This document shows positions 5,516-41,405 of a stretch of DNA of 64,000 nucleotides, piece by piece. Both the position numbers and the translations under genes were made by a program. Source of the stretch: Streptomyces hiroshimensis (GTDB lineage Bacteria > Actinomycetota > Actinomycetes > Streptomycetales > Streptomycetaceae); the NCBI RefSeq assembly GCF_014650335.1, contig NZ_BMUT01000007.1, positions 253,864 to 317,863 of the forward strand. The letters run 5' to 3'. Each line of letters starts with the position of its first letter. Positions within the stretch are counted from its first letter, which is position 1. A model generated the notes under the pieces. The model ran no database searches and was not told where the DNA came from. It saw only the letters and a list, made by a program, of their open reading frames with translations.

Positions 5516-5551
5516 CGCGGACGGCGCCGCCGTAGCCCGCGCCTCCACGTC

Positions 5552-5590
5552 CAAGGCACCGCGTCTAAGGCACCGCGTCTAAGGCACCAC
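5552..5590. repeat. 14-bp tandem repeat spanning a stop codon
   Basis: The 14-base unit (C/T)AAGGCACCGCGTC occurs twice and is followed by a partial third copy (TAAGGCACC). The last copy contains the TAG stop of the alcohol dehydrogenase gene on the minus strand; the middle copy repeats that stop 14 bases downstream. It looks like slippage duplication at a gene end. Confidence 0.7.
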
Positions 5591-9763: not shown

Positions 9764-9832
9764 CGCAGGGCTCCCGGTCTGGGGTGGAGGCGTCCGGTCG
9801 GGTTCCAGGGGCGCCGGTCGGCAGGGGGCCGG

Positions 9833-22300: not shown

Positions 22301-23128
22301 TCAGGCGGCCCGGTGCACCGGCCGCGCCGCACCGGCCTCGGGGTTCTCCCACCAGCGGTCGTTCCCGGTCAGCTCCTTGCCGAGATCGCGCTCGGCGGAC
22401 CAGGAGACGACGAGCATGGTGCGCACCGCCCCGTCCTCCGCCAGCGGCACCGTCCGGTGCATCGTGGTGTCGCTGCGCAGCAGGTAGAGGTCCCCCGAGG
22501 CGAGCCCGTAGGTGTCGATCTGCCGCTCGCACAGGGTCTCGTTGATCCGGGGGTCGTTCTTGTCCCAGTGCGTGTGCGGCACGGCCTGGACCATGCCGCC
22601 GCTCGCGATCGGGGGCATGCGCAGCGCCCAGTTGAACGCGAAGCTGTAGTCGTCCCAGTGCCAGCCGTGGGTGTCCGACGCGAACTCCTGGTGCGTGATC
22701 AGATAGCGCTCGTCATCGGACACTTCCGGAATGATCCGCTCGCGAGTGATGCCCGCCAGGAAGGTCAGCAGGACCTCCGAGCCGGTGACGGCGCGGATCA
22801 GGTCGCTCTGCTCGACGTCCTGGCTCTTGACCACGCTCAGATTGCGCGGTGTGCCGCCGGTGGTGCCGAGCACGAGGTCGCGGCGCTCCTTGTGCTCCCG
22901 GATGAGCCGGTCGGCCTCGGCGCGCACGGCGTTTATCAGCTCTTCGGGGACGATCCGCATGTGCGCGTCGAACTTCACGAAGCCGGTGCGCTGGAAGCGG
23001 TCCGCCAGCTGCTGCACCCGCTCCGGCGTGTAGTTCTCGGCCAGGAATTTCCCGAGCGTCTCGTCGATCTCGCCCACGTTGATCTCGCTTACGGTGATCT
23101 CGTCTGCGTTGATCTCGCCTGCGTTCAT
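22301..23128 (-). CDS. BesD/HalD-like Fe(II)/2-oxoglutarate oxygenase
   Basis: 275 residues. The first ~25 residues are repetitive (EIN/EID units) because of a 15-bp DNA repeat. The iron-binding part reads HGWHWDDYSFAFNW near residue 155, giving an HxD facial triad; the distal His and 2OG Arg are probably in MHRTVPL and VRTMLVVSW. The length and WHW(D/G)DY context resemble the BesD/HalD family acting on free amino acids. BesD halogenases carry HxG, so HxD here predicts hydroxylation rather than chlorination. Last gene of the 7-deazapurine operon; its start overlaps the MFS stop (ATGA). Confidence 0.7.
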   Translation of the reverse strand: MNAGEINADEITVSEINVGEIDETLGKFLAENYTPERVQQLADRFQRTGFVKFDAHMRIVPEELINAVRAEADRLIREHKERRDLVLGTTGGTPRNLSVVKSQDVEQSDLIRAVTGSEVLLTFLAGITRERIIPEVSDDERYLITHQEFASDTHGWHWDDYSFAFNWALRMPPIASGGMVQAVPHTHWDKNDPRINETLCERQIDTYGLASGDLYLLRSDTTMHRTVPLAEDGAVRTMLVVSWSAERDLGKELTGNDRWWENPEAGAARPVHRAA

Positions 23129-24369
23129 GGCGCGTTCTTCTCCTTTGCTGAGGGGTCGGGTTTCGTTTTCCAGCCGATCGCCGCGGCCAGGAGGGCCACG
23201 GCCGGTACCAGCAGGAGCGCCGTGCCGCCGCCCTGCGCGGCGGCGACGTGCGCACCCGCCGCCGCCCCCACCGCCCCGCCGGCCTGGTTGAGGCTGCTGA
23301 GCCAGGCCATGGTCTCGGTGACCCTCCCCTCGGGGGCGAGGTCCCCGGCGAGGGTGTACAGGGTGCCGAAGGCGGAGCCCACGACCGCTCCGGCCACCGG
23401 GCAGACCAGGAGGACCGTCAGCGGCGACAGGCGCGCGGCCAGGGCCAGCAGGCCGGCCCCCGCCGCGAACGCGCAGAGCAGTACGGAGATCCGCGGGCCG
23501 CGCGACAGCAGGGCGGGGGCGGCGCCCAGGGCGAGGCTGCCCAGGATGCTGCCGACGGACATGGCCCCCAGGTACAGGCCCGCGTACCCGGCCGCGCCGG
23601 AGGCCTGGGCGTGGAGGGGCAGTACGACGTCCACGACGGTGATCGCGACGACGAAGAGGCCGTGCGCGGCCATCAGGCGGCGCAGGGGTGCCGAGGCCAG
23701 GGGCCCGGCCGCCCGGTGACCGGGACGGGCCGGGCGCGGTGCGAGCGGGAAGCCGGTCAGCACGCCGACCGCACCGGCCATGAGGGCCGCGATGGCGGCG
23801 AACGGCGCGAATCCCGAGACCGACAGGCTGAGCCAGCCGGTCAGCACCGGGCCGGTGATCAGGGCGGCGTTCGTCAGGGTGGTGTCCAGGGCCATCGCGG
23901 TGGGCAGCGTCCGGGCACCGGCGCTTGCGAACCAGACCGAGCGCATCATGATGCCGACCGGGGGAACGGTGGCTCCCACGACCGCCGTGAGGCAGCAGAT
24001 CGCGACGGCGGACACCCCGTGGGCCACGGCCAGGAGCAGCAGGGCGCCGGCCGTCAGGTATCCGGCGAGGCAGACGGGCAGCACCACGCGGGGCGAACGG
24101 CGGTCGGCGAGCCGGCCGCGCAGGGGGGCGGTCAGCCCCTCCCCCACCGCCAGGCTGCTCACGGCCAGGCCCGCGACGCCGTAGGAGTACTCCCGGCCGA
24201 TGAGCAGCAGCAGGCTCAGGGGGACCATGCCGGCCGGGAGCTTCGACGCGAGGGCGGCCGCCGCGATCCGCCGGAAGCCGGGGGCTCCCAGCAGGTCGCG
24301 GTAGCCGGCGAGCAGCCGGCGCGGTGCGGGCTCGGTCGCCGCGGCGGGCTCGGCGGGCTCGGCGGACAT
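23125..24369 (-). CDS. MFS transporter in deazapurine operon
   Basis: 414 residues with about 12 membrane helices and a short polar N-terminus. GRLADRRSPRVVLP is motif A between helices 2 and 3. The composition is the compact Ala/Leu/Gly-rich type of small-molecule exporters in natural-product clusters. Start overlaps the ATP-grasp stop by one base (TGATG) and its own stop overlaps the hydroxylase start. It most likely exports the operon's product. Confidence 0.85.
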   Translation of the reverse strand: MSAEPAEPAAATEPAPRRLLAGYRDLLGAPGFRRIAAAALASKLPAGMVPLSLLLLIGREYSYGVAGLAVSSLAVGEGLTAPLRGRLADRRSPRVVLPVCLAGYLTAGALLLLAVAHGVSAVAICCLTAVVGATVPPVGIMMRSVWFASAGARTLPTAMALDTTLTNAALITGPVLTGWLSLSVSGFAPFAAIAALMAGAVGVLTGFPLAPRPARPGHRAAGPLASAPLRRLMAAHGLFVVAITVVDVVLPLHAQASGAAGYAGLYLGAMSVGSILGSLALGAAPALLSRGPRISVLLCAFAAGAGLLALAARLSPLTVLLVCPVAGAVVGSAFGTLYTLAGDLAPEGRVTETMAWLSSLNQAGGAVGAAAGAHVAAAQGGGTALLLVPAVALLAAAIGWKTKPDPSAKEKNAP

Positions 24370-25613
24370 CAGTGCGGATCCGGGGCGATCTCCAGCCTGA
24401 CGGTCGCCCTGATCTCGGCGAGCACGCGCTCGACCGTCTGCTGATCGGGGCCCGACACCCAGGCGCCGACGGGAATGGTCTTGACCTCGTGGGTGACGGG
24501 GACGTGGTCACCCGGCTCGTAGGAGACCAGCACCTTGTCGACCAGCGGATGGCTGCGGACCTGCTCCAGCCCGTGCACGGCGACGAGCGTGCCGGGGGCG
24601 TCGTCGTTGCGGACGGCGATGGCCCCGAAGAGCGCGCGGCTGCCGATCGGCTTGTCCATGATCTCCGGGCGGCGCCCCAGGTAGCACTGGAGGGAGTCGT
24701 GGAAGGGCCGGATGTCGGTGTACTGCTCCCACTGGTCCGTGGCGGGGCCGCCGGGGAGCCTGGCCCCCAGCTCGATGAGATGGACCCCCCGGGCGTTGAC
24801 CTTGACCTCGGTGTGGCTGGGTCCGCGGTGCACGCCGAAGGCGGTGAGCAGGTGCGTGACGTGTTCCGCGACCCGGTCCCAGTCGGGGTCCTCGGGGACG
24901 GCCTGGACGTTGTCCCAGAGCGGGAAGTCGTAGTCCCGGGAATCGGGCTGGCGGTACTCCCACATGTCCACGACGCGGTGGTCGCCGTCGCTGCTGAAGC
25001 AGTTGACCGCGAACTCCCGGCCCCTGACGTACTCCTCGACCAGCCACTCGTCCGGCCAGCTGAAGAGGCCGTTCTCGTCCTCGATCCTGAGGTTCTCGGC
25101 GGCCTGCGCGTCCCTGACCAGCGTGACGCCGTTCGCGCCGGCGTCCATGGTGGGCTTGACGATGACCGGGTAGCCGATCTCCGCGGCCGCCGCCGGGACC
25201 TCGGAGAGCTCCCGCACCCGGCGGAAGGCCGGGATGCGGACGCCCGCCCCGGCCGCGTGGGCGCGCATCGCGGCCTTGTTCCGCCGGGCCCACGCGAGGG
25301 AGACGTCGTTGCCCGGCAGCCCGAGGGCGTCCGCGACGACGTCGGCGAGGTGGACCGCGGACTCGAAGGCGGGGACGACGGCCCTGATCTCGTAGTCGAG
25401 GCTGCCGAGGGCTGCCAGCGCTTCGGAGGCGTCCGAGGCGTAGAGGGACAGGTCGTCGCCGTCGGTGTGGTCCGGCCAACGGGCGTTCAGTTCGCGGACC
25501 CCCAGGGTGTACAGGGCGACGACGGCCAGCCCCATGTCCGCGGCCGCCTTCTTGTAGCCCTCCCCGCTCTTGAGCGGGTCGACCAGGAGGACGGCGGGTT
25601 TGCACTCGTTCAC
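24369..25613 (-). CDS. ATP-grasp carboxylate-amine ligase
   Basis: 414 residues. Pre-ATP-grasp Rossmann region (VLLVDPLKSGEGYKKAAADM), then ATP-grasp: YPVIVKPTMDAGANGVTLV for the nucleotide lid, EEYVRGREFAVNCFSSDG, and the Mg-ATP end HTEVKVNARGVHLIELGARLP. Such enzymes activate a carboxylate as acyl phosphate and join it to an amine (dipeptide ligases such as BacD and BesA). It lies in the deazapurine operon, between an IPNS-like oxygenase and the exporter. GTG at 25613 follows GAGAGGGA. The substrate is unknown. Confidence 0.85.
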   Translation of the reverse strand: MNECKPAVLLVDPLKSGEGYKKAAADMGLAVVALYTLGVRELNARWPDHTDGDDLSLYASDASEALAALGSLDYEIRAVVPAFESAVHLADVVADALGLPGNDVSLAWARRNKAAMRAHAAGAGVRIPAFRRVRELSEVPAAAAEIGYPVIVKPTMDAGANGVTLVRDAQAAENLRIEDENGLFSWPDEWLVEEYVRGREFAVNCFSSDGDHRVVDMWEYRQPDSRDYDFPLWDNVQAVPEDPDWDRVAEHVTHLLTAFGVHRGPSHTEVKVNARGVHLIELGARLPGGPATDQWEQYTDIRPFHDSLQCYLGRRPEIMDKPIGSRALFGAIAVRNDDAPGTLVAVHGLEQVRSHPLVDKVLVSYEPGDHVPVTHEVKTIPVGAWVSGPDQQTVERVLAEIRATVRLEIAPDPH

Positions 25614-25667
25614 GGTGTCCCTCTCACGGGAGTCGTCTCGGCAGGGCTCGCGGCGGGCACGGGCGCG

Positions 25668-26678
25668 TCATGCGGCCGGTGCCCGCATGCCGGGGTGGTG
25701 GGCCGCGACGACCTCGGGAAAGGCCCGCAGCATTCCCTTCATGACGTTTTCGCCGTAGCCGGCGAACAGCGGGTTGGCGGGGTCGTCCTCGACTCCGCCG
25801 GCCGCGCTGACGTAGGGGCTCGGCAGCGGCCGCATGGCGGCGTGCAGCTGCGGGTTGTAGAAGAACGGCGCGGAGTAGCGGTCGACGCCGGGGGCGGGCC
25901 GGCGCACGCGGTGGGTGGTGGCCCGCAGGTAGCCGCGGGTGGCGACCTCCAGGAGCTCGCCGAGGTTCACCACGAACGCTCCCGGGACGACGGGGACGTC
26001 CACGAACCGGCCGTCGCCGACGTCGACCTGCAGTCCGCCCTTGTCGTCCTGGAGCAGCAGGGTGAGCAGGCCGTAGTCCTTGTGGACGCCCACTCCCTGC
26101 TCCTCCTCGCCCGCCGCGGAGGCCGCCGGCCCCGGGTAGTGCAGGAGCTTGAAGTGCACGTGCGGGCTCGGGGCCACGACGTCGTCGAGGAAGTCCGCGG
26201 GCGTGTCCAGCGCCTCCAGGATGAGCCGGAGCAGCCGGTGCGAGACCCCGGTCAGCCGGTCCGTCCACTCCAGCACCGCGGGGCGCAGGCCCGGCAGCGC
26301 GGACGGCCACTGGTTGGGCCCGGCGAGCCACAGGTAGGAGGGGTCGCCCGGGCCGGGGCGCAGGGCCGGGCACTCCGGTCCCACGTCCAGCTGCCGGCGC
26401 TGGTCCGGCAGGCCCTGTGTCCGTTCGCGGCCGAGCTCCGAGTACCCGCGGAAGTAGGGCGACTTGAGGATGCTGAGCTCGTCCCGCTCGGATTCGGGCA
26501 GGGCGAAGAACTCGCGGGCGAGTCCGAGCAGGGCGTCGGCGCCCTCGACGCCGTGGCCCACGAGCTGGAAGAAGCCGATGTCGTGGACGGCCGCCCGCAG
26601 GGCGTCCAGGAATGCGGCGCGGGATTGCGCACTCCGTTCGGCGTCGCGCAGGTCGAGCACGGGGAAGATCTCTGGCAA
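25668..26678 (-). CDS. isopenicillin-N-synthase-like Fe(II) oxygenase
   Basis: 336 residues. DIGFFQLVGHGVE near residue 35 and YFRGYSELGRERT are typical of the DIOX_N/IPNS-like superfamily. Iron ligands: His and Asp in GVGVHKDYGLLTLLLQDD, second His in RATTHRVRRP, and RYSAPFF giving the RxS 2-oxoglutarate motif. It likely hydroxylates or desaturates a small substrate. Start is TTG 26678 with AAGGA just upstream. It lies between folE and the ATP-grasp gene in the deazapurine operon. Confidence 0.83.
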   Translation of the reverse strand: MPEIFPVLDLRDAERSAQSRAAFLDALRAAVHDIGFFQLVGHGVEGADALLGLAREFFALPESERDELSILKSPYFRGYSELGRERTQGLPDQRRQLDVGPECPALRPGPGDPSYLWLAGPNQWPSALPGLRPAVLEWTDRLTGVSHRLLRLILEALDTPADFLDDVVAPSPHVHFKLLHYPGPAASAAGEEEQGVGVHKDYGLLTLLLQDDKGGLQVDVGDGRFVDVPVVPGAFVVNLGELLEVATRGYLRATTHRVRRPAPGVDRYSAPFFYNPQLHAAMRPLPSPYVSAAGGVEDDPANPLFAGYGENVMKGMLRAFPEVVAAHHPGMRAPAA

Positions 26679-26723
26679 GGCGTGTCCTTCGTCGGTGGGT
26701 GGGGCTGTCTGCGGGTGCTCCCG

Positions 26724-26764
26724 CCTTCCGGTGTCAGGCGGTGCCCTGGCTTCCGGTCAGGCGG
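26724..26764. repeat. direct repeat at the folE stop codon
   Basis: CCTTCCGGTGTCAGGCGG (26724-26741) and GCTTCCGGTCAGGCGG (26749-26764) repeat the sequence around the TGA stop of folE on the minus strand. Both copies contain the stop triplet. Confidence 0.55.
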
Positions 26765-27353
26765 AGCCCCGGACGAAGGTCAGCAGTTCGGAGCGTGCGG
26801 GGCTGTCCTCCGCGAAGGCTCCGTGGAAGGAGGTCGAGGTCATCCGGGCACTGGTCCTGATCCCGCGCATGGTCATGCACAGGTGCTCGCCCTGGCCGAT
26901 GACGGCGACGTCCTGCGCTCCGGTGATGCGCATGATGTCGTGCGCGACGTCCGAGACGAGGCGCTCCTGGACCTGCAGCTTGTGGGCGTGCTGGTGGGCG
27001 ATCCGGGCGAACTTCGACAGCCCGAGCAGTTGCTCGGCGGACCGGTAGGCGATGGTGAGGGAGCAGTTGAAGGGGAGCAGGTGGTGCTCGCACAGCGACC
27101 ACACCTCGATCCCCGAGACCAGCACCATCTGCCCCGAGGAGGTCGTCTCGAAGAGGGTCTCGATGGTGCCCGGGTCGTAGTTGGTGAACTCCCGCCACCA
27201 GCGGGCGTAGCGCGCCGGGGTGTCCTTCAGGCCGTCCCGCGTCGGGTCCTCGCCGATCTCCAGGAGGAGCCGGCGCGCGAGGCGCTCCAGGGGATCCGCG
27301 TCGGTCTCGCCGACGATGCCCCGCAGCTCGGCGTCCATCTCTGTGTTGAGCAT
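26757..27353 (-). CDS. folE: GTP cyclohydrolase I
   Basis: 198 residues. SLCEHHLLPF carries the zinc Cys and His; HQHAHKLQVQERLV, GEHLCMTMRG and SARMTSTSFHG are the conserved active-site segments. It converts GTP to 7,8-dihydroneopterin triphosphate, the first step to both folate and preQ0. Placement three bases after queE in an operon with queD and queC points to the 7-deazapurine role, as a dedicated copy. Confidence 0.95.
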   Translation of the reverse strand: MLNTEMDAELRGIVGETDADPLERLARRLLLEIGEDPTRDGLKDTPARYARWWREFTNYDPGTIETLFETTSSGQMVLVSGIEVWSLCEHHLLPFNCSLTIAYRSAEQLLGLSKFARIAHQHAHKLQVQERLVSDVAHDIMRITGAQDVAVIGQGEHLCMTMRGIRTSARMTSTSFHGAFAEDSPARSELLTFVRGSA

Positions 27354-27356
27354 CGC

Positions 27357-28088
27357 TCAGACACCTCTCTTGTGTCCCCAGACCAGGGTGTGCAGCCTGG
27401 TCGTGATGTTCCAGCCGCGGTCGATGACCTCGGATACGAGTACGTCCATGTGCTTGCCGATCGCCTCGCTGCTCTGCCCCTCGGGCATGATCCAGACCGA
27501 TCGGATGCCGTACTCCCCGACGAGGCCGGCGACCTCGTCGAGATCGCTCGTCCCCCGGCAGACGAACTTGAAGGTGCTGGAGGGAAGCCCCGCCAGCCTG
27601 TGCAGGGCGGCCGGCACGATGCGCCGCCCGACCGGGTCTCCCGCGTGCGAGAGCTTCGGCGAGACGTTGAAGCGCACGCCGGCCGCGATCAGGTCCTCGT
27701 CGGGCTCCCTGGTGCCGTTCGTCTCGATCTCGATCTCGACGCCACGGCCGGTCAGTTCGCCGACGAGCGGTACCAGCCGCTTCTGCTGGTTCAAGGGCTC
27801 GCCGCCCGAGATCACCACCATGCCGGTGCCGAAGGCGAGCAGCTTTTCCGCGACTTCGCCGACGGGCATGAGATGGAGCTCGGCCTTGGGATCGAACGCG
27901 GTCGCCGCGTCGCTCTCCCCCGCCCAGTCCCAGGTGTACGGGGTGTCGCACCAGTGGCACGAGAGGTTGCAGCCTCCCAGCCGCAGGAAGGCGCACCGGC
28001 GGCCGATGGACCGGCCTTCGCCCTGGAAGGCCGCTAGGTGGGGCCGAAGATCTCGTTGACGACGAGTTCCGGTTCCACAGGGCACCAC
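27357..28088 (-). CDS. queE: 7-carboxy-7-deazaguanine synthase, N-terminus frameshifted
   Basis: 243 residues as an open frame. Radical SAM motif CNLSCHWC, then SGGEPL, IEIETNGT and FNVSPKLSHAGD are QueE signatures; the enzyme converts carboxytetrahydropterin to 7-carboxy-7-deazaguanine. The family N-terminus VVNEIFGPT is present but in another frame: from GTG 28078, nine bases after AAGGAGG, it reads MEPELVVNEIFGPT and hits TAG at 28034-28036. The body frame resumes at FQGEGRS after eight extra bases (TAGCGGCC, 28029-28036). The long frame from GTG 28088 has an unrelated N-terminus and a ribosome site only two bases away. So this is a frameshifted gene, an error, or an enzyme with a new start. 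Confidence 0.85.
   Translation of the reverse strand: MVPCGTGTRRQRDLRPHLAAFQGEGRSIGRRCAFLRLGGCNLSCHWCDTPYTWDWAGESDAATAFDPKAELHLMPVGEVAEKLLAFGTGMVVISGGEPLNQQKRLVPLVGELTGRGVEIEIETNGTREPDEDLIAAGVRFNVSPKLSHAGDPVGRRIVPAALHRLAGLPSSTFKFVCRGTSDLDEVAGLVGEYGIRSVWIMPEGQSSEAIGKHMDVLVSEVIDRGWNITTRLHTLVWGHKRGV
28029..28036 (-). other. frame break in queE (eight extra bases)
   Basis: On the minus strand, codons for GPT are followed by TAGCGGCC and then codons for FQGEG. Removing the eight bases would restore the usual GPTxQGEG junction in one frame. The insertion itself supplies the stop codon. Confidence 0.65.
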
Positions 28089-28099
28089 CTCCTTTTCTT

Positions 28100-28145
28100 G
28101 TCGGGACTCTTCTGGTCAGGCCCTTCTGGTCGGGCCCTTCAGCGG
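28100..28145. repeat. tandem repeat between queE and queD
   Basis: Two copies of a 14-base unit, CTTCTGGTC(A/G)GGCC, follow each other in the queD-queE gap, and a related GGTCAGGGCC occurs at the queD stop. Together with the RBS (AAGGAGG near 28088-28094 on minus) this fills the 67-base gap. Confidence 0.5.
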
Positions 28146-28155
28146 TGAGCCGGGG

Positions 28156-28521
28156 TCAGGGCCGGTACTCGGCCCAGGTCTTCGGCGTCTCGGAGACGCG
28201 TACGGCCGTCAGCTCCGGGTAGACCGTGAACCACTGTTCGTAGATCCACACCGCGAGGTTCTCGGCCGAGGGGTTCTGCTCCTTGACCACGTCGTTCAGG
28301 TGCCGGTGGTCGAGCAGCTCGTCGATCCACTTCTTGAGCTCGGAGAGCTCCCCGTAGTCCCGGACGAAGCCGGGCGGGGTGAGCCGGTCGCGTCCGGCGC
28401 TCAGCTCGACCTCGACGACGTAGTTGTGGCCGTGAAGGCGGCCGCACTGGTGGCCTTCGGGCAGTCCGGCCAGCTGATGGCTCGCCGAGAAGGCGAACTG
28501 CTTGGTGATGCGCAGGGTCAT
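28156..28521 (-). CDS. queD: 6-carboxytetrahydropterin synthase
   Basis: 121 residues. Zinc-binding FSASHQL and GRLHGHNY, the catalytic Cys in HQCGRL, DHRHLND, SAENLAVWIYEQW and RVSETP are the QueD/PTPS signatures. It converts dihydroneopterin triphosphate to 6-carboxy-5,6,7,8-tetrahydropterin, second step of 7-deazaguanine formation. The ATG at 28521 overlaps the queC stop (ATGA). Confidence 0.95.
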   Translation of the reverse strand: MTLRITKQFAFSASHQLAGLPEGHQCGRLHGHNYVVEVELSAGRDRLTPPGFVRDYGELSELKKWIDELLDHRHLNDVVKEQNPSAENLAVWIYEQWFTVYPELTAVRVSETPKTWAEYRP

Positions 28522-29198
28522 GATCCACCGTCCTGATAAATCGTGGGGTCTTGTACTCCGGCGTCGCGGAAGGCTTCCTGCCGTTCCCAGCAGGGTGCGC
28601 AGCGGCCGCAGTGGGTCTCCTCGCCGCGGAAGCAGGTCCACGTCCGGGTCCACGGCACGCCGAGCCGCTCGCCCAGCAGGACGACGCCGCTCTTCTCCAT
28701 CCCGGACAGGGGCGCCAGCAGGTCGAGGTCCGGGTGGGCGTATCCGCGGGTCGCGATCCTCTCCATGGCGATGAAGGATTCGAGGAACGCGGGGGTGCTG
28801 TCGGGAACCGAGGTGACGTCGCCCGCTATGACGCCGATGGCGACGGCCTCGGCCTTCTCCACGACGGCGATCGCGAAGGCGACGGCGAGGAGCAGGGCAT
28901 TGCGGTTCGGAACGATGTTCGGGCTCTCCCCGTAACCGCTCCAGGTCTGCTCGGGCACGTCGACCGAGGGGTCGGTGAGGGAGGAGCCGCGGAACATGGC
29001 GCCGACGGCGCGCAGGTCGGCGACCTGGTGAACGGCGCCGAGCCGCTCGGCCGCGGCGGCCGCGAAGTCGTGCTCCTTGCGGTGCCGCTGGCCGTAGTCG
29101 ACCGACAGCAGGTGTACGTCGTTGCCCTGCTCCTTGAGCTGGTGGGCCATGGTCACGGAGTCCATGCCCCCGGAGACGATGGCGATGATCTTCGACAA
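28518..29198 (-). CDS. queC: 7-cyano-7-deazaguanine (preQ0) synthase
   Basis: 226 residues. PP-loop SGGMDSVTMA near residue 9, VDYGQRH, SPNIVPNRN, and a C-terminal zinc site CFRGEETHCGRCAPCW. QueC uses ATP to turn 7-carboxy-7-deazaguanine into the amide and then the nitrile preQ0. All signature residues are present, so nitrile formation is likely intact. ATG at 29198; next upstream gene is the double ATP-grasp protein, 64 bases away. Confidence 0.95.
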   Translation of the reverse strand: MSKIIAIVSGGMDSVTMAHQLKEQGNDVHLLSVDYGQRHRKEHDFAAAAAERLGAVHQVADLRAVGAMFRGSSLTDPSVDVPEQTWSGYGESPNIVPNRNALLLAVAFAIAVVEKAEAVAIGVIAGDVTSVPDSTPAFLESFIAMERIATRGYAHPDLDLLAPLSGMEKSGVVLLGERLGVPWTRTWTCFRGEETHCGRCAPCWERQEAFRDAGVQDPTIYQDGGS

Positions 29199-29262
29199 TG
29201 GGTGTCCTTGCTGAGGGGTGGGTGCCGGCCGGTGCCGGCGGGTGGGCCCGGCGACGGCGTCG

Positions 29263-31776
29263 TCAGGCGAGCGGGGTGCCGTGGACGGTCACGGCCGCGG
29301 CCGCCTCGTCCAGCGCTGCCGCGCAGCTCTGCTCCGTCCCGGCCACCGCGATGACGAAGGCGTAGCGGGAGCGGACGGGGTCCTTGGGCGGCAGCCGGAG
29401 TTCCTTGCCCGGGCCCGCCAGGACCTGGACGTCGTGGGTAGCGTCCGGGAGCCGGTCGCGGTCGACCTCGACGGACGCGGTCGTCAGGTCCCGGTCGGGG
29501 TAGAGGAAGCGGATGGCGGCGACGGCCGACCGCGTGGGTTCGGTGTCCGGCACCGCGCCGACGGCCAGGTCGGCCGCGATCAGGCCGATGTCCACGCCGG
29601 TGGCGAGCCCGCCCAGGTAGGGGATGCGGTCTCCGCCGACCCGGGCGTTGATCTCCACGACGCGCGGTCCGTCGCCGGTCAGCCGCAGCTCCGTGTGGGT
29701 GACGGTATCGGTGAGCCCGAGCGCGGTGTGCGCGTCCTGGAGGACCTTCAGCAGGCGGGGGTCGTCCAGGAGCGGGTCCCCGGCCAGGACCAGGTGGCCG
29801 GTCTCCTCGAAGCCGGGGGCGTATCCGAGCGACTTGCGGGCCACGAACAGGGCGGTGACGCGGCCGTCGCGGCACACGGCCTCCACGCTGATCTCCGGGC
29901 CGTCGAGGAACTCCTCGATCAGGATCGGGCGCTCGTACGTGGCGACCTCGTCGAACCAGATCCGGCCGGCCTCCTCGAAGGCCTCCTCCAGCTGCTCCGG
30001 ACCGGCCGCGAAGGTCACGCCGCAGCTGGCCGAGAGGGCGCGCGGTTTGACGACCACCGGATAGCCGATCCGGTCGGCGGCCTCCCGGGCCTCTTCGAGG
30101 CCGGCGACGGCGATCGACTCGGCCTGCGGGACCCCGGCGCGCCTCAGCGCCTCGCGCCCGGCGTACTTGTCGCGGCAGGCGCGGACCGCCTCGGGCGGGC
30201 TGGTGCGCAGGCCCAGCGCGGTGGCCAGCCCGGCGGCGGCCTCCACCCGCGTCTCCTCGTAGGTCAGCACCCCGGAGAACTCCTCCGAAGCGGAAGCGGA
30301 AGCCGAAGCCGAACCGGCCCGGGCGAGGGCCGTCATCGCTTCGACGTCCAGCGTGTCCACCACGCCGTGGCCCTCGATGTAGGGGAGCTCCCAGGTCGGA
30401 GGCTCCGGGCAGAACAGGTGCACCCGGTACCTGGTCGCCATCGACCGGAGCATGTACTCGCGCCAGACCTGCCCGCCGCTGCCGATCAGCAGCAACAGCG
30501 GCCTTTCGGCGGCGTCCACGGCGGGCGTGGTGTCCGCGGCGTCGGCGAGCTCCACGGCGAACTGCGCGACGGACTCCTTCGCCCGGGCCAGGGCGGTGTC
30601 CGCGTCGGCTCCGGTGGCGAAGGCGAAGCCCGCCCGGTCCTCCGAAGTCCGGACCGGAGGAATCACATCGCCCACCGCCGCCGTGAGGACGGCGTCCTCC
30701 ACTCCCTCGCAGGCCAGAGCCTCCGCCACGCCGCCGACGGCCGTCACCCGGCCCTCCGGAGGCGTGCAGAACCAGATGGCCGCGGCGCCGGCGAACGGCT
30801 CCCGCACCATGTCCACCGGCTCCCCCGACAGCCACGAGAACGTGAGCTGGTGGATGTCGAAGCCCGTGGCGAGCCGGACGAGCTCGACGATCGCGTCGCC
30901 TCCCGGGCGGGTGTGCGTCTCGATGAGACGGGGCCCCCGTGCGGTGAGGATCATCTCGGTGTGTCCCGGGCCCTCCTGCACGCCGAGGGCGGTCAGCACC
31001 GCCTTCGTCTCGTCGGCGAGCGCGGCACGTTCCGCGGGCGTGATGCGCGCGGGCACCACATGGCCGATCTCGACGCGGTTGTCGTTCGTGAACTTCTCGG
31101 TGACGGCCAGGAGGTGGTGCTCGCCGGCGGTGCTGTGGGTCTCGACGCTGAATTCCCGGCCCACGAGGAACTCTTCGACCACCCACGAGGCCGCGCCCTC
31201 CCCGTCGCCAATGCCTTCCCTGTCGCCGGTGCCGCTGAAGTCCAGCTCCTCCGCCGCGCTTTCGAGCTCCGGCGGGTCGCCGATGACGTGGATGCCGCTG
31301 CTCCCGCTCCCCCGGGCCGGCTTGAGGATCACCGGGAATCCGTGGGCCGCGGCGAATTCCCGGAGGTCGTCCCGGTTCCGCACCGTCGCGGCGGCGACCT
31401 GCCGCACGACCGTGCCCCGCAGGACGTCGCGCATGAGCGCCTTGTCGTTGACGGCCGAGATCGTCCGCAGGGCGTTCGCGCCGAGCCCGAGTACGTGGTT
31501 GATCTGCGCGACAGCCTGGAGGTACGTGTCCCCCGCTGTCAGGGCCAGGTCGAACGGCGCCGCCTCATGCAGCGCGATCGCGGCACGGACGGCCTGCTCG
31601 GGCGTGAGCCCGGGCACCGCGGTCACGGCATCGGCCAGATCGTGGTGGCGCTGGGTCACCGAGGACTCCGGGCCCATGTAGGTGATGTGCAGGCCCGCGT
31701 TCCGGGCCGCCTCCAGCACCTCCGTGCGCATGCCCCCGATGATCAGGACGCTTTTGACGACAGAATTCCGTATCAC
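29263..31776 (-). CDS. fused double ATP-grasp ligase
   Basis: 837 residues holding two complete ATP-grasp modules. Module 1 (about 8-420): FPVILKPARGSGSSGIHVI, EEFLVGREFSVETHS, HTEMILTARGPRLIETHTRP. Module 2 (about 425-837): YPVVVKPRALSASCGVTF, EEFLDGPEISVEAV, HTELRLTGDGPRVVEINARV. A Ser-Ala repeat joins strands near residue 495. Each half also has its own pre-ATP-grasp Rossmann region, so the protein probably carries out two ligations, or one half is regulatory as in carbamoyl-phosphate synthetase. It sits second in the deazapurine operon and its GTG overlaps the Rieske stop (GTGA). Likely role: amide or peptide bond formation on the deazapurine carboxylate or an amino acid. Confidence 0.85.
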   Translation of the reverse strand: MIRNSVVKSVLIIGGMRTEVLEAARNAGLHITYMGPESSVTQRHHDLADAVTAVPGLTPEQAVRAAIALHEAAPFDLALTAGDTYLQAVAQINHVLGLGANALRTISAVNDKALMRDVLRGTVVRQVAAATVRNRDDLREFAAAHGFPVILKPARGSGSSGIHVIGDPPELESAAEELDFSGTGDREGIGDGEGAASWVVEEFLVGREFSVETHSTAGEHHLLAVTEKFTNDNRVEIGHVVPARITPAERAALADETKAVLTALGVQEGPGHTEMILTARGPRLIETHTRPGGDAIVELVRLATGFDIHQLTFSWLSGEPVDMVREPFAGAAAIWFCTPPEGRVTAVGGVAEALACEGVEDAVLTAAVGDVIPPVRTSEDRAGFAFATGADADTALARAKESVAQFAVELADAADTTPAVDAAERPLLLLIGSGGQVWREYMLRSMATRYRVHLFCPEPPTWELPYIEGHGVVDTLDVEAMTALARAGSASASASASEEFSGVLTYEETRVEAAAGLATALGLRTSPPEAVRACRDKYAGREALRRAGVPQAESIAVAGLEEAREAADRIGYPVVVKPRALSASCGVTFAAGPEQLEEAFEEAGRIWFDEVATYERPILIEEFLDGPEISVEAVCRDGRVTALFVARKSLGYAPGFEETGHLVLAGDPLLDDPRLLKVLQDAHTALGLTDTVTHTELRLTGDGPRVVEINARVGGDRIPYLGGLATGVDIGLIAADLAVGAVPDTEPTRSAVAAIRFLYPDRDLTTASVEVDRDRLPDATHDVQVLAGPGKELRLPPKDPVRSRYAFVIAVAGTEQSCAAALDEAAAAVTVHGTPLA

Positions 31777-33077
31777 TCCGCGATACCTGCGATCTCTTCG
31801 TACTTCGCCTGGAGGTGCTCCGGGCGGCCGGCCTGGACGGAGTGGAATCCACCGATCCCGAACAGCCCGCTGCGCTTGCGGGCGGCGAGCTTCTCCTCGA
31901 AGACGGCGCGAGGCATTCCTTCGGTGTAGTAGGACTTGCTGTGGATCGGCAGCTGGATCCTCACGTTGGCCTCGGGGTCGCGCACCGTTCCCGGCGGGTC
32001 CTCGCCCCTGGCGACCTGCTCCATCGCCTCGAAGTACCGGCGGCGCAGCATGGTGATGCCCGCGTCGCTGCGCCCCAGCTGCTCACGGGTCCGGTCCGTG
32101 ACGGCTCCCTGGCCCGCCCAGGTCGCGAAGTCCTGGTTCAGGGTGTGCGACATGATGACGTCACCGGTCGCCGGGTCGGTGTAGGGGCCGTACCAGTACG
32201 GGACCGTGTCGGAGCCCTGCTCGCCGGTGGGCGCGTCGTCCGGGAGCACGGAGTACTGCCAGGTGATGTTGAGGGTGCGGCGCTCGTCCACCGGCACGCG
32301 GAACTCGATCGTGCTGCCGGAGACGAGGGTGTACGGCCACAGGCAGAGGATTCCTCCGTCGGCCACGTTGCTGGTGCGTGCGTACTCGCCCTTCGGGGCG
32401 TTGACCGTGTCGACCACCCGGCCGTTGACGAATCCGTACGCGAACTCCAGGAATTCGATGTCCAGATGGGTCGCGACGTAGTCACGGGCGTCGGGATTGC
32501 CGCGCACCACGTTGCCGTTCGAATGCAGCCATTCGAAGTGGACCGGGTCGACGCCGTTCTCGTGGCACTGGAACCAGTTGCACGGGAGTTCCGTCATGAT
32601 GACCTCGACGAAGCCGTGGCTCCAGCTGAAGGGTTCGAAGTCCGGCAGCAGCGGCGCGGGGTCCGGGCCCAGATAGGCCCAGACGAGACCGCCGAGGGTC
32701 GCGGTGGGGTACGAGGCCGTGCGGACCTTGTCGCGAAACCCTCCGGACGGGCCCGCCTCCTCGAACGGCTGGCTGACGCAGCGGCCGCTCGCGTCGAACG
32801 CCCATCCGTGGTAGGCGCAGCGCAGGGCGTCGCCGTCGACCCAGCCGAGGGCGAGGTCGGCACGCCGGTGGGGACAGTGGCGGGAGATCAGGCCGTGGCC
32901 GCCGTCCTGCTTGCGGAACAACAGGAGGTCCTCGCCCAGCAGCTTGACCGGCTTGACCCGCCGTTCGCGCAGCTCCATGGCCGGGGCGACCGGGTGCCAA
33001 TACCTGCGCAGCAGTTCACCCATGGGCGTGCCGGGGCCCACTTCCGTCAAGGTCCGGTTCTTCTCCGCTGACAGCAC
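31773..33077 (-). CDS. Rieske non-heme iron oxygenase, alpha subunit
   Basis: 434 residues. Rieske centre: CPH near residue 68 and CAYHGW near residue 88 (C-x-H ... C-x2-H). The catalytic iron site is in NGVDPVHFEWLHSNG, with the His-x4-His pair and a preceding Asp bridge. A C-terminal starred-START-like domain follows. Start GTG 33077 with AGGA six bases upstream. It is the first gene of the operon. It needs a reductase, not encoded nearby. It probably hydroxylates, demethylates or desaturates the deazapurine product or a side chain. Confidence 0.9.
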   Translation of the reverse strand: MLSAEKNRTLTEVGPGTPMGELLRRYWHPVAPAMELRERRVKPVKLLGEDLLLFRKQDGGHGLISRHCPHRRADLALGWVDGDALRCAYHGWAFDASGRCVSQPFEEAGPSGGFRDKVRTASYPTATLGGLVWAYLGPDPAPLLPDFEPFSWSHGFVEVIMTELPCNWFQCHENGVDPVHFEWLHSNGNVVRGNPDARDYVATHLDIEFLEFAYGFVNGRVVDTVNAPKGEYARTSNVADGGILCLWPYTLVSGSTIEFRVPVDERRTLNITWQYSVLPDDAPTGEQGSDTVPYWYGPYTDPATGDVIMSHTLNQDFATWAGQGAVTDRTREQLGRSDAGITMLRRRYFEAMEQVARGEDPPGTVRDPEANVRIQLPIHSKSYYTEGMPRAVFEEKLAARKRSGLFGIGGFHSVQAGRPEHLQAKYEEIAGIAE

Positions 33078-33446: not shown

Positions 33447-35909
33447 GTGCTGATCGGGGAGCGGATCCGGGCCCTGCGCACGGAGCGCGGGTGGTCGCTG
33501 GCGCAGCTGTCGCAGCTCGTCAACTACAGCAAGAGCTATCTGAGCCGGGTCGAGAACGGCACCCGTGCGGTCTCCCCCGAGGTCGCCCGGCTGTGCGACC
33601 GCGTGATGGACACGGACGGCGAGCTGACGCGGCTGGTCACGGCGGCGGAAGCGTCCGCGCTGGGCTGCCGCGAGCCGGAGGCCCGGACGTCGGAGGCCCG
33701 GACGGCGGACGCTCGTACCGAGGAGGCCCGTACCGAGGAGGCGCGGGCGGCGGGGGGCCCCCGGCGTCCCGTCCCCGCGCAGCTGCCCGCCGCCGGGGAG
33801 ATGTGGGGCCGGGACGGCGAACTGGCCCGTGCGGAGGCGCTCCTCGCGCGGCACTCCGGGCCGACGGTGCTCGTGGTGGACGGGATGGGCGGCGCGGGCA
33901 AGACCACGTTCGCCGTCTCGCTGGCCCGGCGCCTGGGCCCGTCGTACCCCGACGGGGCGCTCTTCACCGACCTGCAGGCGCACGGCCCGGACGGCAGCCC
34001 GGCGGTGCCGGGCGACGTGGCCGCGGGGCTGCTGCGTGCTCTCGGGGCGGCGCCGGAGGACGTCGTCGTCGATCCGGCCGAGCGCGCGGCGCTGCTGCGG
34101 AGCGTCCTGGCGGAGCGCCGCGTGGTCATGGTTCTCGACGACGCGGACTCGGCCTTGCAGGTCGCGCCGCTGCTGCCCGGCACGGGCCACAGCCTCGTCC
34201 TGGTCACCAGCAGACGGCGGCTGACGGGCCTGAGCGTCCGGCACGACGCGATGCGCCTGAGCCTGGAGCCGCTGTCCGCCGACGAGGCCGTGCTGCTGCT
34301 GCGTCGGGCGCTCGACCGGCGCGCGGTGTCCCCGGCAGCGGTGCTTCCGGCTCCGCTGTCTCATGAGGCCGTGCCGGCCGGCTCCCCCGGCGGCGATGTC
34401 GTGCTGGCCGCCATCGCGCACCGCTGCGCGTACCTTCCGCTGGCGCTGCGCATAGCCGCCGAGCGGGTGGCCGACCGGGGGGAGGTCTTCGCCGCCGCGC
34501 TGGCCGAGGAGCTGGGCCGGGCGAGTTCGCGGCTGGACGCCCTGGCGGTGCCGGGAGAGGCCGAGACGGCGGTGCGCCCGGTGTTCGCCTGCTCGTACCG
34601 GACGCTGCCGGAGGAGCAGGCGCGGGCGTTCCGGCTGCTGGCACGTCACCCGGGCGTCGTGGCGGGAGTGGACGCCGTGGCGGCCCTGCTGGGCGAGCCG
34701 TCCGCCGTCGCGTCACGCCTGCTCGGCGAATTGCACGCCGCCCATCTGGTGGCGGAGGTCGCGCCCGGCCGGTACCGGATGCACGACCTGCTGCGGGAGT
34801 ACGCGGGGGAACGCGCCGAGGCCGAGGAGTCCCCGGAGATCCTGGCGGCCTGCACCGGGCGGGTGCTCGGCTGGTACCTGCACACCGCCGAGGCCGCTGC
34901 CGACCAGTTGCTCGGGCTCGGACGCCACCGCGTGCCGCTCGATCCGCTTTCCGAAGGGTGCCGCCCGCTGCGCTTCGCGTCCGTCACCGCGGCACTGGAG
35001 TGGTACGAGGAGGAGCGCGTGAACCTGCTGGCCTGTGCGCGGGCCGCCCGCGCGGCGGGCAGCGCGGTGGCCTGGCAACTGCCCCACGCGCTCTGGAGCT
35101 TCTCGTTCCTGCGCCACCACCATCACGATCAGCTGCAGGCCGGGCGCATCGCCCGCAGCGCCGTCGGCGCAGGCGCGGGGGCGCCGCTGGCCGAGGCGTG
35201 CGCGGAGCTGGTCCTGGCCAGCGCTCACGCGGGTCTTCGGCAGCATGCGACGGCGGACGGGCACTACCGCCGGTCGATCGAGCGGTTCGCCGCGGCGGGG
35301 GACCACACCGGCGAAGGGGGCGTGCTCCTGGGCTACGCCTTGTCCTGCATGCGGCAGGGCCGCGTCGCCGAGGCGAACGGGCACGTCGAGCGCGCCCTGG
35401 AGCTGTTCACGGCGGCCGGCAGCGGCTGGGGCACGGCGATGGCGCTCATCGGAGTGGGCGAGGCGCTCCTGGCGCAGGGCCGGCCGCGGGCGGCGCTCGC
35501 ACCGCTGTCCCGGGCGCGCGAGCTGCACCGCACGCACGGCTCGCTGTGGCTGCAGGCGTCGTCCTGGACGCTCACCGGGACCGCCTACCGGGAGCTGGGC
35601 GAGCACACGAGCGCGGAGGACTGCTACCGCGCTGCGCTGGAGCTCCACGGCCGCACCGGGATGCTCGCCGGCACCGCGCAGGCCCTGCACCAGCTCGGCA
35701 TCTGCCTGAGCCTGCAGGGCCGCGCGCAGCAGGCGCGGCGGGCCTGGCTGCGGGCATGGGCGATCTACGAAGCGCTGACGGATCCGCGCGAACAGGACGT
35801 CCGGCGCTCCCTCGCCGGGCTGGCGCCCTGCCGCGCGGCGGCGGGCGGCGACGGTCCGGGACAGCCTGCCCGCTCACGAGCCGGGCGCCCGGCACTTCCC
35901 GCCCCCTGA
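33447..35909 (+). CDS. HTH/NB-ARC/TPR transcriptional regulator
   Basis: 820 residues. XRE-type HTH at 5-60 ([20 protein letters not shown]), then an NB-ARC ATPase with Walker [13 protein letters not shown] near residue 150 and [11 protein letters not shown] as Walker B, and a C-terminal half of TPR-like helical repeats. This is the STAND/AfsR-like layout of cluster-situated activators that switch with ATP or ADP. GTG at 33447. A Glu-Ala repeat ([12 protein letters not shown]) lies in the linker. It is divergent from the deazapurine operon and likely activates it. Confidence 0.85.
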
Positions 35910-39794: not shown

Positions 39795-41405
39795 TCACCG
39801 AGGACGCCCGCCGTGCTCCACGGGCAGGCGGTACTCCGCGCCGGCCTCCGGGATGCGGGCGCCCGTGGCCCGCAAGTGGCCGACCCGCGTCTGGTGGGCG
39901 GCTCCGCGCATCAGATGCTCCGCGACCACCGCGGCCTCGCGGCGGGCAGGCTCCGCCAGGGCCGTGCCGGCGGTCCAGACGTTGAACGCCCCCATCGCCG
40001 GGCCGCACCAGATCTGCCGGTCCCCCGCGCGCTCCGGTGCTCCGGTGACGGCCCACCGGGAGGTCATACCGAGGTACCAGCGGAACACCATGGCCATGCG
40101 GTACTTCGGATCGCGCTCGGCCCGGGCCAGCCAGTCCGGATGGTGTTCCTTCAGGTACGCGGCCGTGTCCGCCCACGTCCGGTCCAGCGACCGGTGCAGC
40201 ACGCGCTCCTCCAGACGCCTGCGCTCGGTGTCCGGCAGCTCGTCGAGGCCGCCGTGCTCGTGGTAGAGGCGGTACAGCAGCCCGGCCCGGGCGGGAAACA
40301 TCGTGCCGCGCCCGAGCACCTGCACCTGGATGCCCTGCTCGAACATGTCGGCGGCCGGTGCCATCACGCAGTCGGCGATCCCGGCCTCCGCCAGCAGCCC
40401 CTTGACCGCCGCCGACGTGTCCGCCTCCACTGCGGCCTGGTTCACCGAGCCGGTGACCACGTAGTCGGCGCCCAGCGCGAAGGCCGCCGCCACCGCGTGC
40501 GGCGAGCCGATGCCGCCCGCCGCCCCCAGATGCACCGGCGGCAGCGCGTCGCCGTACTCTCGCGCGACCCGCGCCCGCACCCGTGCCAGCGCGGGCAGCA
40601 GCACCGTCAGCGGCCTGCGGTCGGTGTGACCTCCCGAGTCGGACTCGGCCGTGACGGCGTCGGCCACCGGCACCGAACGGGCCAGCTCCGCCTGCTCGGT
40701 GGTCACCCGGCCCTGGTCCCGCAGCGCGCGCACCAGCGCCTCCGGCGCCGGCCGCAGGAACATCTCCGCCGTCTCCTCCCGGGAGACCTTGCCGATGACG
40801 CGGTGCTCCGCGCACACCCCGCCCGTCCGGTCGCGCCGCAGCCCGGTGAGGCGGTATCGCACCAGCTCCGGCGTGAGCCGGACGAACGCCGACGCCTCCA
40901 CGCACCGCACCCGGTGCCGCAGGCACAGGTCCACCACGATCCGTTCCAGGTGCGGCGCCGCCGGGCTGTGGATGAGGTTGCACGCGTACGGGCCGTCGCC
41001 CGGCTCCCGGGCCAGCTCGCCCAGCGCCGCGTCGATCCGCCCCTCCGGCAGCCCCGCCGAGCCGAACGCCGCGAGGGCGCCGGCCCGGGACAGGGCGGCC
41101 ACCAGGCGCGTACCGGCGATGCCGCCGGCCATGGCCCCCGCCATGTAGGGCAGGCGCAGGCCGTGCCGGTGCAGGAAGCCGGGCGAACCGAGCCGCTCGG
41201 GCGGCATCGCCCCCGCGGTGGCCAGCACCTCCGCTCCCCGCGGCGGCACCTGGCACATGCCCACCCGGCCGCCGCTGCGCACCAGGTGGCAGGGGACCTC
41301 CAGCGACGACAGCACCCGGTACACGCCCTCGGGATCGCTGTACACACCTTCGGGGGCGCCGGGCACGCTCCCGGGGGCGCCGGGCACGGCAGTCGTGCGG
41401 TCCAT
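39795..41405 (-). CDS. PfaD-like enoyl reductase (nitropropane-dioxygenase fold)
   Basis: 536 residues. After a Pro/Gly-rich N-terminus, a flavin TIM barrel follows: LPYMAGAMAGGIAGTRLV, AAGGIGSPHAVAAAFALGADYVVTGSVNQAA, and the PfaD-specific C-terminal part with MFPARAGLLYRLY, RDPKYRMAMVFRWYLGM and GPAMGAFNVW. In PUFA synthases PfaD is the FMN enoyl reductase acting in trans. Start overlaps the previous stop by one base. It ends YRLPVEHGGRPR, a plausible family terminus, but coding-like sequence continues in the next frame (see findings). Confidence 0.87.
   Translation of the reverse strand: MDRTTAVPGAPGSVPGAPEGVYSDPEGVYRVLSSLEVPCHLVRSGGRVGMCQVPPRGAEVLATAGAMPPERLGSPGFLHRHGLRLPYMAGAMAGGIAGTRLVAALSRAGALAAFGSAGLPEGRIDAALGELAREPGDGPYACNLIHSPAAPHLERIVVDLCLRHRVRCVEASAFVRLTPELVRYRLTGLRRDRTGGVCAEHRVIGKVSREETAEMFLRPAPEALVRALRDQGRVTTEQAELARSVPVADAVTAESDSGGHTDRRPLTVLLPALARVRARVAREYGDALPPVHLGAAGGIGSPHAVAAAFALGADYVVTGSVNQAAVEADTSAAVKGLLAEAGIADCVMAPAADMFEQGIQVQVLGRGTMFPARAGLLYRLYHEHGGLDELPDTERRRLEERVLHRSLDRTWADTAAYLKEHHPDWLARAERDPKYRMAMVFRWYLGMTSRWAVTGAPERAGDRQIWCGPAMGAFNVWTAGTALAEPARREAAVVAEHLMRGAAHQTRVGHLRATGARIPEAGAEYRLPVEHGGRPR

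What the first reader, a model, noticed from the sequence alone, without database searches (positions are those of the whole stretch)
22301..33077. Candidate undescribed 7-deazapurine natural-product operon with two ATP-grasp ligases and three oxygenases
Seen directly: ten same-strand genes with mostly overlapping or closely spaced ends: Rieske oxygenase, double ATP-grasp, queC, queD, queE, folE, IPNS-like oxygenase, ATP-grasp, MFS, BesD-like oxygenase. Known: FolE-QueD-QueE-QueC build 7-carboxy-7-deazaguanine (CDG) and preQ0. Known deazapurine antibiotics such as toyocamycin and sangivamycin add sugar-transfer genes; none is seen here. Inference: CDG or preQ0 is joined to amino acids by the ATP-grasp enzymes and oxidised, giving a deazapurine amide or pseudopeptide that is exported. 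No tgt, queF or dpd genes accompany it, which argues against tRNA or DNA modification. I do not recognise this combination from a characterised cluster.
Basis: partly seen in the sequence, partly recalled or inferred. Interest (0 to 1): 0.85.

Follow-up and report, generated by a model that had tools for sequence, protein, structure and literature searches.

The report
Deazaguanine–lysine pseudopeptide biosynthetic gene cluster
This ten-gene Streptomyces operon most likely makes and exports a small molecule in which a guanine-like base is joined by an amide bond to hydroxylated lysine and other amino acids, and it belongs to a recently named class of natural products.

Summary
The operon is real: ten minus-strand genes (22301-33077), overlapping or closely spaced. 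The genome has no TGT match and one full-length QueC, so the que genes do not serve tRNA queuosine. All ten proteins have counterparts in S. palmae (two contigs); eight, plus half of the double ATP-grasp, recur rearranged in S. rimosus.

Among 53 QueC loci (52 Streptomyces genomes' or plasmid loci plus the window's), all 15 with an ATP-grasp gene nearby lack both tyrosines (E. coli Y131, Y189) reported essential for making preQ0; all 38 without one keep both. The 15 form one clade, so this is one evolutionary event. I read this QueC as a ligase joining 7-carboxy-7-deazaguanine to an amino acid or peptide amine, not a preQ0 synthase.

The "BesD-like" gene is 95% identical to the crystallised L-lysine 4-hydroxylase "Hydrox". 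Its S. palmae counterpart carries the three changes that turned Hydrox mainly into a chlorinase, so sister clusters may make hydroxy- and chlorolysine versions.

The product class is not new: a 2025 JACS paper, seen only as a citation, names "deazapurine amide-bond synthetases" and "peptidyl deazapurine natural products". I file this as a new variant of that kind. The roles of the Rieske and second 2OG oxygenase are unresolved.

The parts
31773..33077 (-). Rieske non-haem oxygenase, first gene of the operon; role unknown (oxidation of the deazaguanine or of the pseudopeptide)
   Evidence: Pfam Rieske 9e-20 and LigXa_C 1e-12; 76% identical in S. palmae, 73% in S. rimosus, next listed match 60% in a pattern-based scan of 84,980 genomes that kept the best 80 of 395 relatives
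29263..31776 (-). double ATP-grasp amino-acid ligase (two ATP-grasp + LAL_C2 units fused)
   Evidence: Pfam, two stretches each; two separate genes in S. palmae, only the C-terminal half as close homologue in S. rimosus
28518..29198 (-). QueC-like protein lacking the tyrosines equivalent to E. coli Y131 and Y189; proposed CDG-amine amide synthetase
   Evidence: Pfam QueC 8e-51; motif comparison and tree
28156..28521 (-). QueD, 6-carboxytetrahydropterin synthase (ATG taken at MTLRITKQ)
   Evidence: Pfam PTPS 5e-32; TIGR03367 9e-25, just below its cut-off
27357..28088 (-). [quoted passage not shown]
   Evidence: Pfam Radical_SAM 1e-9; TIGR03365 3e-22, below its curated cut-off
26757..27353 (-). 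FolE, GTP cyclohydrolase I, second copy in the genome
   Evidence: Pfam 3e-51; better-scoring copy on another contig
25668..26678 (-). Fe(II)/2OG oxygenase of a clade found with these que genes
   Evidence: Pfam; clade of cluster types A, B and D, support 94/100
24369..25613 (-). ATP-grasp amino-acid ligase (ATPg1), the ligase family shared by cluster types A, C, D and E
   Evidence: Pfam ATP-grasp_4 and LAL_C2; 47-68% homologues
23125..24369 (-). MFS exporter
   Evidence: Pfam MFS_1 3e-29; 60-61% homologues in S. rimosus and S. palmae
22301..23128 (-). L-lysine 4-hydroxylase of the BesD/HalD family (HxD motif)
   Evidence: 246/259 identical to PDB 7JSD 'Hydrox'
33447..35909 (+). divergent HTH/NB-ARC/TPR regulator, candidate pathway regulator by position only
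   Evidence: Pfam; the S. palmae and S. rimosus clusters instead have a MmyB-type regulator beside the Rieske gene

Best explanation
A biosynthetic operon for an exported 7-deazaguanine pseudopeptide ('peptidyl deazapurine'). FolE, QueD and QueE make CDG from GTP (established pathway, inferred for these proteins). The last gene hydroxylates L-lysine at C4 (shown in print for a 95% identical protein, inferred here). The three ATP-grasp units condense (hydroxy)lysine and other amino acids into a short peptide (inferred from family). The divergent QueC adenylates the CDG carboxylate and passes it to an amine of that amino acid or peptide, instead of ammonia, giving a deazaguanine carboxamide rather than preQ0 (inferred from the loss of two preQ0-essential tyrosines across its clade). 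The 2OG oxygenase and the Rieske enzyme oxidise the base or the peptide (position unknown), and the MFS protein exports the product.
For: All ten genes, spaced as an operon. No TGT match and one full-length QueC in the genome, the other PF06508 match covering 68 of 210 positions. All ten proteins have counterparts in S. palmae, the double ATP-grasp as two genes; in S. rimosus nine of ten lie on one contig, the double ATP-grasp as its C-terminal half, without the hydroxylase. Of 53 QueC loci (all 51 matches at 1e-25 in 392 Streptomyces genomes, plus S. palmae and an S. angustmyceticus plasmid), 15 of 15 with an ATP-grasp gene within 10 kb lack both Y131 and Y189, and 38 of 38 without keep both. 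Published E. coli Y131A and Y189A mutants are inactive (PMC13329287). The 15 form one clade, 99/98, with E146 in 15/15 versus 0/38. Cap9, another QueC-family protein, is reported to conjugate a deazaguanine to a protein N-terminus (PMC11996544 abstract). Hydroxylase 95% identical to Hydrox. 'Peptidyl deazapurine' products and 'deazapurine amide-bond synthetases' are named in print. Amino-acid enzymes vary between cluster types.
Against: No product, expression or assay data. The tyrosine pattern is one evolutionary event, not 15 independent ones. A diverged Virgisporangium QueC (L113) also lacks both tyrosines with no ATP-grasp found in its 19 kb, so the rule fails outside the set I counted. 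Cap9, the clearest precedent for amide conjugation, keeps the YxDC tyrosine. The JACS paper was not readable, so I do not know that its synthetases are QueC homologues. The S. rimosus contig lacks the hydroxylase, so lysine is not shown to be general. Nothing fixes the sites of the Rieske and 2OG reactions, or the number and order of amino acids.
Confidence: 0.72

Rival explanations
1. QueC supplies only the primary amide (ADG) or is a helper, and an ATP-grasp ligase joins CDG to the amino acid, or amino acids are attached elsewhere on the base. The first reader's mechanism.
For: ATP-grasp genes are the other constant component of these clusters; ATP-grasp amino-acid ligases activate carboxylates (established for the family); the phosphate-loop, YxQxHxxE, VPxRN and zinc motifs of QueC are kept.
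Against: Direct use of CDG by an ATP-grasp enzyme would make QueC dispensable, yet QueC is kept in these clusters with two preQ0-essential tyrosines replaced. The clusters were found through QueC, so clusters without QueC would have been missed.
Confidence: 0.17
2. The cluster makes a preQ0-derived nitrile or amidine natural product, with QueC acting canonically.
For: The NCBIfam preQ0-synthase model matches, though below its curated cut-off (141.6 against 150.3 bits); toyocamycin, sangivamycin and huimycin use preQ0 (PMC6112128 and PMC7439116, passages).
Against: Loss of Y131 and Y189 in the whole clade; E. coli Y131A and Y189A are inactive.
Confidence: 0.08
3. The que genes serve tRNA queuosine or DNA modification, and the neighbours are unrelated.
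For: 91% of the QueC family falls in the canonical cluster with those roles (PMC13329287).
Against: No TGT-family match in the genome while the same search finds it in 14 of 14 control genomes; co-clustering with ligases and oxygenases in other genomes.
Confidence: 0.01

Closest known systems
Peptidyl deazapurine natural products / deazapurine amide-bond synthetases (Ji et al., JACS 2025, 10.1021/jacs.5c13285; seen only as a reference and one citing sentence in PMC13144596)
   Same: By title and citing sentence: deazapurines joined by amide bonds to peptides, made from clusters expressed in S. albidoflavus J1074.
   Different: Cannot be compared: the paper is not held. Whether the Rieske-containing, lysine-hydroxylating variant with a fused double ATP-grasp is among its clusters is unknown.
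Echiguanine A/B (echiguanine A from Streptomyces sp. MI698-50F1 is listed in PMC6112128)
   Same: Recalled, not from a call: a 7-deazaguanine carboxamide with a basic amino side chain, and no published gene cluster that I know of.
   Different: The exact structure was not available to me; no sequence link. A lead only.
Toyocamycin/sangivamycin, tubercidin and huimycin clusters
   Same: FolE, QueD, QueE homologues (and QueC in toyocamycin and huimycin) make the deazapurine core.
   Different: Those are nucleosides or glycosides; no sugar-transfer gene was identified in this operon. The 38 QueC loci without ATP-grasp, including the second S. rimosus QueC, keep both tyrosines.
Cap9 (type IV CBASS) and QatC
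   Same: QueC-family proteins reported or proposed to attach a deazaguanine to an N-terminal amine.
   Different: Those modify proteins in phage defence; Cap9 keeps YxDC and has a reduced YxQxHxxE, QatC is remodelled and about 400 aa. Here the other motifs are canonical and the two tyrosines are lost.
Hydrox (PDB 7JSD) and BesD
   Same: Hydrox is 95% identical to the last gene product and hydroxylates L-lysine at C4 (PMC11185610, passages).
   Different: BesD chlorinates lysine (PMC13244439), with HxG in place of HxD, in another pathway (motif and pathway recalled).

Membership tests
Canonical QueC (preQ0 synthase) | SGGxDS, YxQxHxxE, VPxRN and Zn-Cys motifs | tested here: met
Canonical QueC (preQ0 synthase) | Y131 (YPDC) and Y189 (TCY) | tested here: not met
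   V and F in the window protein; 0 of 15 clade members have either tyrosine, 38 of 38 others have both
Peptidyl deazapurine cluster (features inferred from a title, not from the paper) | CDG pathway genes beside amino-acid ligases and no sugar-transfer gene | tested here: met
Deazapurine amide-bond synthetase | homology of the QueC-like protein to the published synthetase | not testable with these tools
   JACS paper not held
Deazapurine amide-bond synthetase | amide bond between CDG and an amino acid formed by the enzyme | not testable with these tools
   needs an assay
L-lysine 4-hydroxylase (Hydrox) | close homology and HxD iron-ligand motif | tested here: met
   246/259 identical; HWD
BesD-type lysine halogenase | HxG motif | tested here: not met
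   window HWD; the S. palmae counterpart has HWG
tRNA-queuosine or dpd DNA-modification locus | a TGT-family transglycosylase in the genome | tested here: not met
   0 matches, 14 of 14 controls positive
Isopenicillin N synthase | IPNS as nearest relative of the 2OG oxygenase | tested here: not met
   best PDB match 9OVH (7e-58); IPNS about 1e-9

The most novel reading that the evidence does not exclude
A pair of sister clusters naturally makes hydroxy- and chlorolysine versions of the same deazaguanine pseudopeptide, by a switch of the lysine oxygenase between hydroxylase (this genome) and halogenase (S. palmae, with the D142G, N149I and V223N changes that were engineered into Hydrox), joined to CDG by a QueC-derived amide synthetase and further oxidised by a Rieske enzyme on the deazaguanine, a modification I know of from no characterised deazapurine.
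Probability: 0.3. Interest if true: 0.72.

Novelty: new variant of a known kind. Interest (0 to 1): 0.55.

Why it matters
It gives a candidate natural pathway to Hydrox, a lysine hydroxylase that has been crystallised and repeatedly engineered, and shows an apparent hydroxylase-to-halogenase swap between orthologous clusters. It supplies a simple sequence rule (two missing tyrosines plus Glu at E. coli position 146) that separated, among the Streptomyces QueC loci examined, those beside amino-acid ligases from the rest, which should help to find further peptidyl deazapurine clusters (13 of 392 Streptomyces genomes sampled). If the ligase role is right, it is a further repurposing of the QueC fold beside Cap9 and QatC.

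Tried and rejected
Queuosine or DNA modification: rejected, no TGT match. IPNS-type chemistry: not supported. Chlorinated product in this strain: not expected, HxD motif. Inferring the 2OG oxygenase substrate from its common Streptomyces paralogues (88 of 296 relatives had a match at 1e-60 or better, cluster members included; most in the genus 55-60% identical): I looked at the neighbours of two of them (own contig C11 and G013), found no common or purine-related theme, and dropped it. The Rieske-anchored scan kept 79 loci (best 80 of 395 relatives): two are these clusters (S. palmae, S. rimosus); of the other 77, screened against the window proteins (three at 1e-4, 74 at 1e-10), none showed a que or ATP-grasp homologue and one a weak 2OG match. 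Double-ATP-grasp search in 392 Streptomyces genomes at 1e-100: 19 genomes, mostly single-domain matches of about 47-53% without que genes in the 1.5-kb flanks; only S. rimosus led on. Plasmid searches: one related cluster, S. angustmyceticus p1, of another type. Class-wide QueC search: 6 of 394 genomes at 1e-45 including the window's own; the other five QueCs have both tyrosines. Virgisporangium QueC (L113) lacks both tyrosines and no ATP-grasp was found in its 19 kb; it came through another route and is not in the 53-locus count. Echiguanine as product: two held papers name it, neither gives its structure in the passages I saw. Promoter and terminator scan: 0 and 2 found against 0.4 and 3.0 in shuffles.
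Full report
What is there. The window holds ten minus-strand genes between 22301 and 33077 in the order Rieske, double ATP-grasp, queC, queD, queE, folE, 2OG oxygenase, ATP-grasp, MFS, BesD/HalD-family oxygenase. Three junctions overlap by 4 nt, one by 1 nt, one gap is 3 nt and the other four are 54-78 nt, as expected of one transcript. A divergent HTH/NB-ARC/TPR regulator starts at 33447. Beyond the operon's end lie genes of no evident relation (a 146-aa protein without a Pfam match, DUF5997, LysR-type, LCAT-like, CobW-type).

Not for tRNA or DNA. The 7.76 Mb genome has no TGT-family match, while the same search rings in 14 of 14 control genomes. It has one full-length QueC, the other PF06508 match covering 68 of 210 positions, and a second folE on another contig. 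queF was not searched for.

Conservation. A Rieske-anchored scan of 84,980 genomes gave two further clusters. In S. palmae, two contigs together hold counterparts of all ten proteins (Rieske 76%, QueC 85%, QueD 86%, QueE 74%, FolE 81%, 2OG oxygenase 74%, ATPg1 68%, HalD-type 66%, MFS 61%), with the double ATP-grasp as two genes (64% and 72%). That the two contigs are adjacent is not shown. In S. rimosus NRRL WC-3904 one 18-kb contig holds nine of the ten, rearranged, with only the C-terminal half of the double ATP-grasp (69%; the N-terminal half finds there only the two other ligases, at 26-31%) and no HalD-type match; the rest of that genome was not searched for them. The N-terminal ATP-grasp half and the lysine oxygenase are thus present or absent together in three clusters, which suggests, on three cases only, that this half handles the modified lysine.

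A wider family. A QueC search found matches at 1e-25 in 45 of 392 Streptomyces genomes, 51 loci. I took DNA round all 51 (the window itself) and added S. palmae and the S. angustmyceticus plasmid p1. Fifteen of 53 have an ATP-grasp gene within 10 kb; 38 do not. Limits: 10 of the 38 have under 8 kb held on one side, the ATP-grasp HMM was built from proteins of these same clusters, and more diverged QueCs fall below 1e-25. By gene content I sort the 15 into types: A (window, S. palmae, S. rimosus); B (six; methyltransferase, aspartyl hydroxylase-like, one ATP-grasp, BTAD regulators; an LPG-synthase-like transferase in four, out of reach in one, not found in about 3.9 kb beyond the ligase in one); C (three; class III aminotransferase in the two annotated; three ATP-grasp matches in each of the two with extended flanks); D (two; DapD-like protein in both, with a DAP/Orn decarboxylase in one and an aminotransferase in the other); E (one; beta-eliminating lyase). 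Que genes, ligases and, where the flanks reach, exporters recur while the amino-acid enzymes change, which is what a family of base-amino acid conjugates would look like. The 2OG oxygenases of types A, B and D form one clade (94/100) apart from the common Streptomyces paralogues; type C has a distant one, and none matched in E (in the tree one gene was entered twice and one row was truncated).

The QueC signature. A 2026 study reports that E. coli QueC Y131A and Y189A are inactive, Y131F partly active (PMC13329287; passages and parts 1 and 2 of 5 read). All 15 ATP-grasp-associated QueCs lack both (V/A/G or a gap at 131; F/L/M at 189), and all 38 others have both. The 15 also have E146 (15/15 against 0/38) and V171 (15/15, where the 38 have I), and lack R135. 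In a tree of 39 rows (16 of the 38 canonical rows left out, E. coli and B. subtilis added) the 15 are one clade with support 99/98, so this is one change, later inherited; it is not a sample of 15 independent cases. A result against a clean rule: a diverged QueC of Virgisporangium (L113, not in the count) also lacks both tyrosines, and no ATP-grasp was found in its 19 kb. The other QueC motifs are kept in the 15, with D-type variants in the phosphate loop of one, so an adenylating enzyme that no longer makes the nitrile is the simplest reading. QueC-family proteins that attach a deazaguanine to an amine are reported: Cap9 (PMC11996544 abstract) and, as proposed, QatC (PMC13329287; two passages of PMC13279940). 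Cap9 keeps its YxDC tyrosine but has Glu next to the zinc cysteine, so the parallel is partial.

The lysine oxygenase. From its ATG at 23128 the product matches PDB 7JSD at 246 of 259 positions. 7JSD is 'Hydrox', an L-lysine C4 hydroxylase (PMC11185610 and PMC13244439, passages). The variant with D142G, N149I and V223N chlorinates with about 84% selectivity (PMC13244439). The window protein keeps D, N and V; the S. palmae homologue has G, I and N at the same places. So this strain should make 4-hydroxylysine, and S. palmae is predicted to make 4-chlorolysine, within otherwise matching clusters. This is inferred; neither protein has been assayed here.

Mechanism, with status. GTP to CDG by FolE, QueD, QueE: established for the families, inferred here. 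Lysine C4 hydroxylation: shown in print for a 95% identical protein. Peptide formation by three L-amino-acid-ligase-type ATP-grasp units: inferred. CDG amide formation by QueC: inferred from signature, clade and precedent. 2OG and Rieske oxidations: sites unknown. Export by MFS: inferred.

What is known. A citing sentence and reference in PMC13144596 (passages) name 'peptidyl deazapurine natural products' and 'deazapurine amide-bond synthetases' (Ji et al., JACS 2025). That paper is not held, and one further search found no other paper on it. Earlier searches (listings capped in 63 and 76) showed me no title or abstract start that describes this gene set; led to the citation. I had written down the QueC reading before seeing that title. 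PMC11888242, PMC12648386, PMC6112128 and PMC7439116 (passages) describe dpd islands and deazapurine nucleosides, not this set. I therefore call this a new variant of a known kind; if the JACS paper treats this very cluster type, it is already known. Echiguanine A is listed as a Streptomyces deazapurine (PMC6112128); its carboxamide structure is my recall.

Noticed in passing
L112 about 5187-5933 (S. palmae) against window 22301-23128: Natural counterpart of the engineered Hydrox-to-halogenase switch: G, I and N replace D, N and V.
   Followed up: partly
window 43885-49935 (-) and 39795-42995 (-): Large polyketide synthase ORF with KS, AT, KR and DH domain matches, and a neighbouring ORF with a FabD helical insert domain; another biosynthetic locus in the window.
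   Followed up: no
L113 (Virgisporangium aurantiacum, G393:C101), QueC at about 9730-10308: A diverged QueC with QueD- and QueE-like neighbours that also lacks both tyrosines but has no ATP-grasp in its 19 kb; the genome was reached through a 60% Rieske match on another contig.
   Followed up: partly
L130 (S. angustmyceticus plasmid p1, NZ_CP104318.1): Type B cluster on a 616-kb plasmid, with an LPG-synthase-like gene, an aspartyl hydroxylase-like gene and a weakly WelO5-like oxygenase.
   Followed up: partly
L170 and L171 (type D, G199 and G388): DapD-like protein in both, with an aminotransferase in G199 and a DAP/Orn decarboxylase in G388, beside que genes; resembles tabtoxin precursor genes (recalled), so these may couple CDG to a lysine-pathway amino acid.
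   Followed up: no
G048 C48 (L177), S. rimosus: A second QueC with both tyrosines in the same genome as the divergent one; possibly a toyocamycin-type locus, since S. rimosus ATCC 14673 makes toyocamycin (PMC6112128); its neighbours were not annotated.
   Followed up: no
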